This document shows positions 33,982-35,185 of a DNA stretch of 64,000 nt, in pieces. The position numbers were made by a program, and so were the translations under genes. Origin of the DNA: Paucidesulfovibrio gracilis DSM 16080. Lineage in GTDB: Bacteria; Desulfobacterota; Desulfovibrionia; Desulfovibrionales; Desulfovibrionaceae. The stretch covers positions 62,001 through 126,000 of the forward strand of contig NZ_FUYC01000003.1 in NCBI RefSeq assembly GCF_900167125.1, given 5' to 3'. The notes beneath the pieces are model-generated. The model was not told where the DNA came from. It saw only the letters and a list, made by a program, of their open reading frames with translations, and made no database searches. Position 1 is the first letter of the stretch. Every line of letters starts with the position of its first letter.

Positions 33982-34431
33982 ATGAAAGCATTGATTGTCT
34001 ATGGTTCAACGACCGGTAATACGGAGACAGTGGCGGATTGGATCGGTGATTCACTGCGGTCCCGGGGAGTGGAAGTAACCGTGGCGGACGCTGCGGAAAC
34101 AGATGCCGAGGGCATGGCCGAAGGGTATGATGCCGTGCTGTTGGGGTCGTCCACCTGGGGAGACGATGAAATAGAGTTGCAGGACGACTTTGCCGAATTG
34201 TTCGACGATTTGGACAAGGCCGGGCTGCAAGGAAAGCCTGTGGCCGTATTTGGTTGCGGCAGTACGGATTACACTTTTTTTTGCGGTGCCGTGGATGCCA
34301 TTGAATCCAGGGCGGAAGACCTGGGGGCGCATATTGTCGGATCTTCCTTGAAAATTGACGGGGATCCGGAACAGGATGACGTGTTGGCCTGGACCACGGA
34401 AGTTGCAGGCTTTTTCCAGGGGGCGCAATGA
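33982..34431 (+). CDS. Flavodoxin
   Basis: The 149-residue FMN protein closely matches Desulfovibrio flavodoxin: the phosphate loop YGSTTGNTE at residues 7-15, [16 protein letters not shown] for one side of the flavin, and [19 protein letters not shown] for the other. Flavodoxin replaces ferredoxin as a low-potential electron carrier, typically when iron is scarce, which fits the Fur-like site upstream. Its stop overlaps the next ATG (ATGA), linking it to two small TPR-like genes. The start follows AAAGGAA. Confidence 0.97.
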
Positions 34432-34862
34432 GCGGTTGTTCGAAATCCTGCGGAAGATGCCGGATGTTGGGGCGGGTCGGCGACTTGTGCCGAAGCGGTA
34501 TGGCGCTATGCGCCGCCCAGGAACATGAACTGGCGGAACGTGTGTTGCGCATGGCCCTGGACTTGGTGCGGGAGTATGATCTTGGGCCGATTTTGGAGGC
34601 TAAGACCGCCAACAATTTGGGACTTGTGTATGCGGCGATGGAACGCGAAAATCAGGCCGGATCACAGTTTGCCAGAGCGTTGCAGTTGATCAGGGGACGA
34701 GTGGGAACGGACAATAAGCTGTATCGCACCGTAAACAATAATTATACTCAGGTAATTGGACAACAGGTCCGACAGTATAAAAACGTAGTGGATGAGTGCG
34801 CCGGGCGTTGCGTCTCGGCCCGACCCGACTTGATAGTGGGCGCGTGCGCCTGCGGGAGGTAG
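34428..34862 (+). CDS. Cysteine-rich TPR-like protein coupled to flavodoxin
   Basis: The 144-residue protein begins with a cysteine cluster (C4, C8, C11, then C21 and C28) and ends with another (ECAGRCVSA and GACACGR). The middle (residues about 30-110) has helical repeats like tetratricopeptides, including [30 protein letters not shown]. The cysteines could bind metal or an iron-sulfur cluster. The ATG overlaps the flavodoxin stop, so co-translation and shared iron control are likely. Function unknown. Confidence 0.8.
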
Positions 34863-34864
34863 AA

Positions 34865-35185
34865 ATGCCGGAATTGAAAGCCATTGCCGACTATAACAGG
34901 CGTGCCATGCGTGCGGCCGGGGAAGGCCGTTTGGAACAGGCGTTGCTCAATTTGTCTATGGCCTTGCGGTTGGCGCGGGAAATCAGACGTGTGCAGCTGG
35001 AGTCGTATTCCAAAGGCAATATGGGGCTTGTCTACCTCATGGCGGGAAAGCGGCGGGAAGCCGCAGTATGCTTCCGATTGGCCCTGCAGCGAGCCAAAAC
35101 CGAATGCGGCTCGGATCATCCCCTGTGCTATGCCCTGAAAAATAACATCAGAAAAATGTCGGTCCGTCAGCGTTCCGCTGCGTAG
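34865..35185 (+). CDS. Small TPR-like protein, paralogue-like neighbour
   Basis: The 106-residue protein has TPR-like helical repeats: AAGEGRLEQALLNLSMALRLAREI and GNMGLVYLMAGKRREAAVCFRLALQRAK. It resembles the repeat core of the preceding gene but lacks its cysteine clusters. The start codon lies two bases after the upstream stop, with a GGGAGG site. It is third in the flavodoxin operon. It could be a scaffold or partner-binding protein; no function is known to me. Confidence 0.8.
   Translation: MPELKAIADYNRRAMRAAGEGRLEQALLNLSMALRLAREIRRVQLESYSKGNMGLVYLMAGKRREAAVCFRLALQRAKTECGSDHPLCYALKNNIRKMSVRQRSAA

What the first reader, a model, noticed from the sequence alone, without database searches (positions are those of the whole stretch)
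33982..35185. Flavodoxin operon with a cysteine-rich TPR protein and a small TPR neighbour
Two small TPR-like proteins are translationally linked to flavodoxin; the first has cysteine clusters at both ends (C4, C8, C11, C21, C28 and near the C-terminus). They could be partners or regulators of flavodoxin in iron stress, a role not known to me.
Basis: inference. Interest (0 to 1): 0.55.

Follow-up and report, generated by a model that had tools for sequence, protein, structure and literature searches.

The report
Iron-starvation TPR genes behind flavodoxin
Behind the flavodoxin gene of a sulfate-reducing bacterium sit two small repeat-protein genes that belong to a family apparently switched on when iron is scarce; the family was noted in 2004 and its function is still unknown, and its repeated pairing with flavodoxin gives a concrete way to find out what it does.

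Summary
A short-chain flavodoxin (33982-34431) overlaps by ATGA a 144-aa cysteine-rich TPR protein (34428-34862), followed 2 bp later by a basic 106-aa TPR protein (34865-35185). Two 17-bp Fur boxes shifted by 6 bp (33909-33931), the published Desulfovibrio pattern, precede the operon.

Both TPR proteins belong to the family of GenZ, a 100-aa two-TPR protein predicted in 2004 to be Fur-regulated beside genY (PMC545781). They fall in two separate GenZ lineages. In 247 genomes of the order, 80 have a GenZ: 15 beside this flavodoxin, at least 22 beside a DUF2325 gene (probably genY). In named loci the flavodoxin-GenZ pair reaches Desulfobacterales and a Desulfarculaceae bin. All 13 distinct A-type GenZ proteins counted from fld operons carry an N-terminal CX2-4C motif.

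Flavodoxin is not a required partner: genome G127 has no detectable flavodoxin but keeps GenZ directly behind the Fur boxes, and 27 of 80 GenZ genomes show no flavodoxin of this type.

Best reading: Fur-controlled TPR adaptors made with flavodoxin in low iron. The client is unknown.

The parts
33909..33931 (+). [quoted passage not shown]
   Evidence: Score 45.9 with a matrix from 34 published Desulfovibrio sites; next independent site in the 64-kb window 20.4; 0 of 200 single-base shuffles of the upstream region reach it. Sequence re-read.
33982..34431 (+). Short-chain flavodoxin (fld), 149 aa
   Evidence: TIGR01753 over cut-off, Flavodoxin_1 9e-33; closest solved chains 4heq and 1fx1, E 3.4e-57 and 1.3e-49; net charge -24.
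34428..34862 (+). GenZ-family TPR protein, A lineage (144 aa, cysteine-rich ends)
   Evidence: TPR_12 1.2e-9; relatives; A-lineage clade 100/97 in the tree; N-terminal CX2-4C; AlphaFold2 mean pLDDT 90, five helices.
34865..35185 (+). GenZ-family TPR protein, B lineage (106 aa, basic, pI 10.5)
   Evidence: TPR_10 above cut-off; relatives; B clade 100/99; 92 and 77% identical in the two genus mates; mean pLDDT 94, five helices.
34854..34859 (+). GGGAGG ribosome-binding-like site for TPR B
   Evidence: Sequence; recognised by eye.
35244..35279 (.). 14-pair hairpin between TPR B and the convergent gene at 35305-35694, possible terminator
   Evidence: Terminator scan reports it on the - strand only. 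Matches were about as frequent as in shuffles (3 found, mean 2.2); this is the longest stem of the three.

Best explanation
The operon is an iron-starvation unit. When iron is plentiful, Fur sits on the tandem boxes and silences it; when iron falls, flavodoxin (an iron-free electron carrier) is made together with two GenZ-type TPR proteins, translationally coupled to it. GenZ A and B are most likely small adaptors: a two-TPR solenoid with a capping helix whose inner face holds a segment of a client protein during the switch away from iron proteins. In A-type proteins an N-terminal CX2-4C motif may bind a metal or react to redox state. The client is probably a protein common to iron starvation in these bacteria rather than flavodoxin alone. 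Shown by computation: the operon layout, the Fur boxes, family membership, repeated linkage to fld and to DUF2325, and the fold prediction. Inferred: Fur control in this organism, translational coupling, client binding, and the role of the cysteines.
For: Fur double boxes precede 14 of 14 distinct fld genes examined in fld-GenZ loci from whole genomes (three further linked genomes, G117, G222 and G225, had no locus fetched and were not examined). Of 47 distinct GenZ loci away from fld whose protein was recovered, 34 have a double box within 350 bp upstream and 10 lie behind a boxed DUF2325 gene. In 80 named flavodoxin loci (790 kb), 18 of 19 GenZ-profile hits lie within 700 bp of fld. GenZ adjoins fld in 15 of 80 GenZ-positive genomes and DUF2325 in at least 22; DUF2325 adjoins fld in at least 4. 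Models: pLDDT 90 and 94, five helices; nearest solved folds are TPR domains such as kinesin light chain and Rap, several of them solved with bound peptides. Asn is kept at the positions of TPR-B N52 (55 of 75 rows) and N94 (65 of 74).
Against: No expression, binding or metal data exist here. The fold is generic TPR: the best Foldseek E-value was 6.7e-4 for A and 1.7e-3 for B. The groove-facing placement of the Asn residues is recalled TPR knowledge, not measured. Five fld-GenZ pairs outside Desulfovibrionales (L129, L142, L145, L149, L163) have no Desulfovibrio-type Fur box before fld, and three GenZ loci of another family of the order (L008, L033, L034) have no box. The Asn at TPR-B N11 (41 of 75 rows) is absent from all 15 A rows (C21 in the window).
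Confidence: 0.5

Rival explanations
1. Direct flavodoxin partners: the basic TPR proteins dock the very acidic flavodoxin and hand it to, or hold it away from, its redox partners.
For: Overlapping stop and start; repeated fld-GenZ pairing in separate GenZ lineages, including Desulfobacterales; charge contrast of flavodoxin -24 against +6 and +12.
Against: 27 of 80 GenZ-positive genomes lack a flavodoxin of this type; G127 has no fld by profile search but keeps GenZ at the Fur boxes. GenZ proteins away from fld are about as basic (means +3.2 beside DUF2325 and +4.3 elsewhere against +4.5), so charge is not specific to fld-linked ones.
Confidence: 0.2
2. Shared promoter only: GenZ genes work independently and sit behind fld because a Fur promoter is a convenient place to land.
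For: GenZ is found under Fur boxes in three settings (with fld, with DUF2325, alone); GenZ without fld at the boxed promoter in G127.
Against: The pairing recurs in distant lineages, often with overlapping or near-overlapping ends; it also occurs outside Desulfovibrionales without this Fur box.
Confidence: 0.25
3. Metal or redox sensor/chaperone: the CX2-4C motif (with the C-terminal cysteines in this genus) binds iron, zinc or an iron-sulfur cluster and changes TPR binding when iron is low. This can be combined with the adaptor reading.
For: CX2-4C in 13 of 13 distinct A-type fld-linked proteins counted; the position of C11 is Cys in 15 of 15 A rows.
Against: Absent in all 6 distinct B-type proteins; DUF2325-linked GenZ have an N-terminal Cys in 9 of 10 but no CX2-4C; of the five pairs outside Desulfovibrionales, only L149 shows two N-terminal cysteines (a CxC).
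Confidence: 0.2
4. Iron-sparing RNA-binding protein, a counterpart of the small basic Fbp proteins of Bacillus (recalled).
For: Fur boxes, small size, basic B protein.
Against: Clear TPR fold prediction; the family is on average only mildly basic (means +3.2 to +4.5).
Confidence: 0.05

Closest known systems
genY(C)-genZ of Desulfovibrio (Rodionov et al. 2004, PMC545781)
   Same: 100-aa two-TPR protein; operon preceded by two Fur boxes shifted by 6 bp; the published D. vulgaris genY boxes resemble those before the DUF2325-GenZ pairs of Nitratidesulfovibrio.
   Different: In the window the genes sit behind fld, not genY; there are two, from separate lineages; A carries cysteine-rich ends. The only DUF2325 match in the window's genome lies on another contig with its own double box and no GenZ beside it.
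Fur-regulated fld of Desulfovibrio (PMC545781)
   Same: Flavodoxin preceded by the same kind of double Fur box, predicted to be iron-repressed.
   Different: The table entries seen list fld alone, without TPR genes; the Nitratidesulfovibrio fld loci fetched (L126, L131) show no GenZ hit, though both are short contigs with 1.4 and 2.6 kb downstream of fld.
Kinesin light chain and Rap TPR domains (PDB 5oj8, 7ai4, 8rtc)
   Same: TPR solenoid, among the nearest solved folds.
   Different: Larger proteins; about 17-23% identity; no functional relation implied.
DUF2325 protein Cj1384 of Campylobacter (PMC9426514, two passages seen)
   Same: Same Pfam domain as the gene that often adjoins GenZ; small, cysteine-rich, strongly induced under stress, function unknown.
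   Different: Beside katA, in oxidative stress; no TPR or flavodoxin link seen in those passages.

Membership tests
GenZ (Fur-regulon TPR protein) | About 100 aa with two TPRs | tested here: met
   106 aa (B) and 144 aa (A, with tails); TPR hits and five-helix models.
GenZ (Fur-regulon TPR protein) | Operon preceded by tandem overlapping Fur boxes | tested here: met
   33909-33931.
GenZ (Fur-regulon TPR protein) | Sequence kinship with the GenZ encoded beside genY/DUF2325 | tested here: met
   Window A and B each find the DUF2325-adjacent gene of G148 (E 2.7e-7 and 2.7e-9); the same pair is in Nitratidesulfovibrio oxamicus, N. liaohensis and Desulfovibrio sp. A2. The D. vulgaris Hildenborough protein itself was not compared.
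GenZ (Fur-regulon TPR protein) | Located next to genY (C-terminal domain) | tested here: not met
   No DUF2325 gene beside the window genes; the genome's one match is on C10. That genY(C) is DUF2325 is an inference from layout, size and boxes. I therefore call the window proteins GenZ-family members, not GenZ itself.
Short-chain flavodoxin (TIGR01753) | Score above the curated cut-off | tested here: met
   150.1 against 123 bits.
Short-chain flavodoxin (TIGR01753) | Binds FMN and carries electrons | not testable with these tools
   The phosphate-loop-like GSTTGNT is present (motif recalled); no assay.

The most novel reading that the evidence does not exclude
GenZ A and B are a new class of iron-starvation adaptor. 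A senses low iron or redox state through its N-terminal CX2-4C, and the A/B pair docks flavodoxin, or a client shared with DUF2325 proteins, onto oxidoreductases, so that electron flow is re-routed from ferredoxin to flavodoxin by protein adaptors and not only by swapping carriers.
Probability: 0.15. Interest if true: 0.7.

Novelty: new variant of a known kind. Interest (0 to 1): 0.42.

Why it matters
I found no function in print for the Fur-controlled TPR proteins of sulfate reducers since genZ was named in 2004 (searches, in an open-licence library only). The recurring fld-GenZ, DUF2325-GenZ and DUF2325-fld pairings suggest one low-iron module and supply specific protein pairs to test. G127, with GenZ but no fld, is a natural experiment that separates the two. 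If GenZ steers electron carriers it would bear on how sulfate reducers cope with iron limitation.

Tried and rejected
Tried and rejected. (1) A recent tandem duplication of one TPR gene: rejected, because A and B fall in separate clades, though this is a tree of 75 short rows with 14 open forks and a long-branch warning that names a B row, and the placing of B near g5 and Desulfobacterales proteins is weakly supported. (2) Charge complementarity as evidence for flavodoxin binding: not specific to fld-linked GenZ. (3) The upstream histidine kinase as part of the unit: it ends at 33787, before the Fur boxes; kinase genes near GenZ of g10 are only 26-31% similar to it, and fld in genus mates L003/L004 has other upstream genes. 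(4) First genome-contig scan with TPR A: 62 pattern matches, no relative. (5) A sigma-70-type promoter: none found on the + strand in 33600-35400. (6) Literature: searches for DVU0303, DVU0304, genZ, genY, genYZ, DVU2680, DVU2681, DUF2325, and flavodoxin with TPR/Fur terms gave, in the listings shown (capped at 20 or 30), PMC545781 as the only paper on genZ of Desulfovibrio; two flavodoxin papers (PMC10913485, PMC7084853) name DVU2680 and were seen as listings only. PMC4576408 was seen in passages and held nothing on these genes. I recall a 2007 fur-mutant study of D. vulgaris but did not see it.

Limits of counts. One search repeats the flavodoxin tally with all 127 flavodoxin-positive genomes: 80 GenZ genomes after dropping G006 (a 755-aa TPR protein), 27 without and 53 with flavodoxin. 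G118, which one search printed as lacking flavodoxin, has one. DUF2325 adjacency is a lower bound: 19 plus G004, G013 and G018 seen in loci L015, L012 and L011. Flavodoxins more distant than E 1e-20 are missed; six genomes were re-searched by profile, and the three of them counted as lacking flavodoxin (G127, G254, G046) again gave no match. Dropped before the box and cysteine counts: L016/L022 (long TPR protein), L019 and L045 (protein not recovered), L044's GenZ (below the cut-off), and second loci of the same gene (L071, L072, L091, L093). Some GenZ starts were picked by script; L007 and L028 look too short, and L037's is too far upstream, so its box is counted with its DUF2325 gene.

Full report
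What is there. The window lies in G000, contig C3. At 33982-35185 three genes run on the + strand: a short-chain flavodoxin, a 144-aa TPR protein starting in the overlap ATGA at 34428, and a 106-aa TPR protein at 34865, 2 bp after the previous stop and behind GGGAGG. Nearest solved flavodoxins are 4heq (E 3.4e-57) and 1fx1 (E 1.3e-49).

Regulation. The sequence GTGAAATTGAATTTCATTATCAA at 33909-33931 holds two 17-bp sites shifted by 6 bp. PMC545781 (I read its iron section and passages of its tables) gives WTGAAAATNATTTTCAW as the delta-proteobacterial Fur box and two partially overlapping boxes shifted by 6 bp as typical of Desulfovibrio, and predicts fld to be a target. With a matrix from 34 of the published sites the window's double box scores 45.9; the next independent place in 64 kb scores 20.4. 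The same kind of double box precedes fld in 14 of 14 distinct fld genes examined in fld-GenZ loci from whole genomes, with 0 of 200 single-base shuffles as high in each; three further linked genomes (G117, G222, G225) had no locus fetched. Fur binding itself was not tested, and no sigma-70-type promoter was found there.

What the TPR proteins are. The same paper names genZ, a gene beside the C-terminal-domain form of genY behind two Fur boxes, encoding a 100-aa protein with two TPRs. Searching with the window proteins finds a family of similar size: TPR A matches in 18 of 59 near relatives at E <= 0.001 and 56 of 247 genomes of the order at E <= 1e-5, TPR B in 48 of 247, 81 together. One of these (G006) is a long TPR protein, leaving 80. 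In N. oxamicus, N. liaohensis and Desulfovibrio sp. A2 the family member lies about 190 bp behind a DUF2325 gene that has a double Fur box at -67, much as described for genY(C)-genZ in D. vulgaris. I infer that genY(C) is DUF2325; the D. vulgaris proteins themselves were not compared. DUF2325 has no known function; a Campylobacter member is strongly induced under light stress (PMC9426514, two passages).

Where the family sits. Of the 80 genomes, 15 have the gene within 1 kb of the flavodoxin and at least 22 within 1 kb of DUF2325 (19; three more in loci). Of 47 distinct GenZ loci away from fld whose protein was recovered, 34 have a double box within 350 bp upstream and 10 are second behind a boxed DUF2325 gene; only L008, L033 and L034 have none. 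In at least four genomes of another family DUF2325 itself adjoins fld, and in three named loci it lies upstream of fld (L136, L156, L170). The window's genome has one DUF2325 match, on contig C10, with its own double box (score 34.3) and no GenZ beside it. So fld, GenZ and DUF2325 occur in all pairwise combinations, nearly always behind the box in the Desulfovibrionaceae loci examined.

How far the fld pairing goes. A flavodoxin scan of named genomes kept 80 loci (the best of 444). A GenZ profile built from session proteins gave 19 hits in their 790 kb; 18 lie within 700 bp of fld, in 16 loci. At least four of these loci repeat contigs already seen. Fourteen have GenZ downstream of fld, two upstream (L112, L123, where the Fur box precedes GenZ). 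They include Desulfobacula, Desulfobacterium, Desulfobacter vibrioformis DSM 8776, a Desulfobacterales bin and a Desulfarculaceae bin. These five lack the Desulfovibrio-type box before fld, so their regulation is open. Overall 9 of 16 GenZ-linked and 29 of 62 scored unlinked fld loci have the box at a score of 25 or more directly before fld (two unlinked loci were too short to score), so the box marks fld in general, not the pairing.

Two lineages. In a tree of 75 rows, A-type proteins form one clade (17 rows, 100/97, including two rows not beside fld) and B-type another (7 rows, 100/99), the latter placed with weak support near stand-alone GenZ of g5 and the Desulfobacterales proteins. The tree rests on 116 columns with 14 open forks and a long-branch warning, but it does not support a recent duplication. 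Identity to the window in the two genus mates is 92 and 77% for B, 72 and 62% for flavodoxin, 63 and 48% for A, so B is the most conserved of the three there; beyond the genus B falls to 41-52% in L005, L023 and L025.

Cysteines. An N-terminal CX2-4C just before helix 1 is in 13 of 13 distinct fld-linked A-type proteins counted, in 0 of 6 B-type, in 0 of 10 DUF2325-linked ones (9 of which have an N-terminal Cys) and in 10 of 36 others (the automatic boundary was loose for three of these ten, and it missed L026). The position of C11 is Cys in 15 of 15 A rows. Two or more cysteines in the last 25 residues occur in 3 of 19 fld-linked proteins, all A-type of the window's genus, and in 3 of 36 others. 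Metal binding is a guess.

Fold and function. AlphaFold2 gives five helices, two TPRs and a cap, at mean pLDDT 90 (A) and 94 (B); the tails of A are less certain. Nearest solved chains are TPR domains of kinesin light chain and Rap, at modest E-values. Asn at B N52 and N94 is widely kept; that such Asn face the peptide groove is recalled TPR knowledge. This fits an adaptor that holds a peptide segment. The window's flavodoxin is very acidic (-24; mean -16.5 for 14 flavodoxins) and B basic (+12), but GenZ away from fld is similarly basic on average, so this is not specific.

In G127 (genus g25, 99% complete, 160 contigs) the box is followed at once by GenZ, with no fld gene between, and a flavodoxin profile finds none in that genome at E <= 0.001. 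The stretch upstream resembles that of L032, a g25 genome that does have fld there, so loss of fld is likely but the order of events was not tested. Together with 27 of 80 GenZ genomes lacking a flavodoxin of this type, this says that GenZ has work apart from flavodoxin. GenZ occurs in 53 of 127 flavodoxin-positive and 27 of 120 flavodoxin-negative genomes; this is uncorrected for kinship and only a hint of association.

Verdict. A Fur-type operon carrying two members of a known but unexplained family in a less-known setting. Best reading: low-iron TPR adaptors made with flavodoxin; direct flavodoxin partnership is possible but not required.

Noticed in passing
window 38114-43000, + strand: A cytochrome c-like gene (CxxCH motifs), a large molybdopterin-type protein with a twin-arginine-like start, an iron-sulfur protein and an NrfD-like membrane protein: looks like a Qrc-type complex (names recalled, not searched).
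   Followed up: no
window 31863-32180, + strand: 105-aa protein with a signal-peptide-like start and several cysteines; no Pfam or NCBIfam match at E <= 1.
   Followed up: partly
window 35305-35694, - strand: 129-aa protein without a family above cut-off, kept in the genus mates (66-76% identical); convergent with the operon.
   Followed up: partly
L097:7272-7937: 221-aa TPR protein with a signal-peptide-like start behind genZ-B in the genus mates (also L004:2300-2962); not seen at that place in the window.
   Followed up: no
L064:1498-1872: Stand-alone GenZ of a g5 genome with a C-terminal cysteine-rich tail (6 Cys in the last 25 residues).
   Followed up: no
L007, L026-L029, L031: GenZ with a double Fur box upstream and a sensor kinase-like gene nearby in genus g10.
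   Followed up: partly
L050-L070: GenZ of genus g5 lies near PitA/DUF47-like phosphate transport genes and, in a dozen loci, an Mrp/NBP35-like ATPase (identified by eye).
   Followed up: partly
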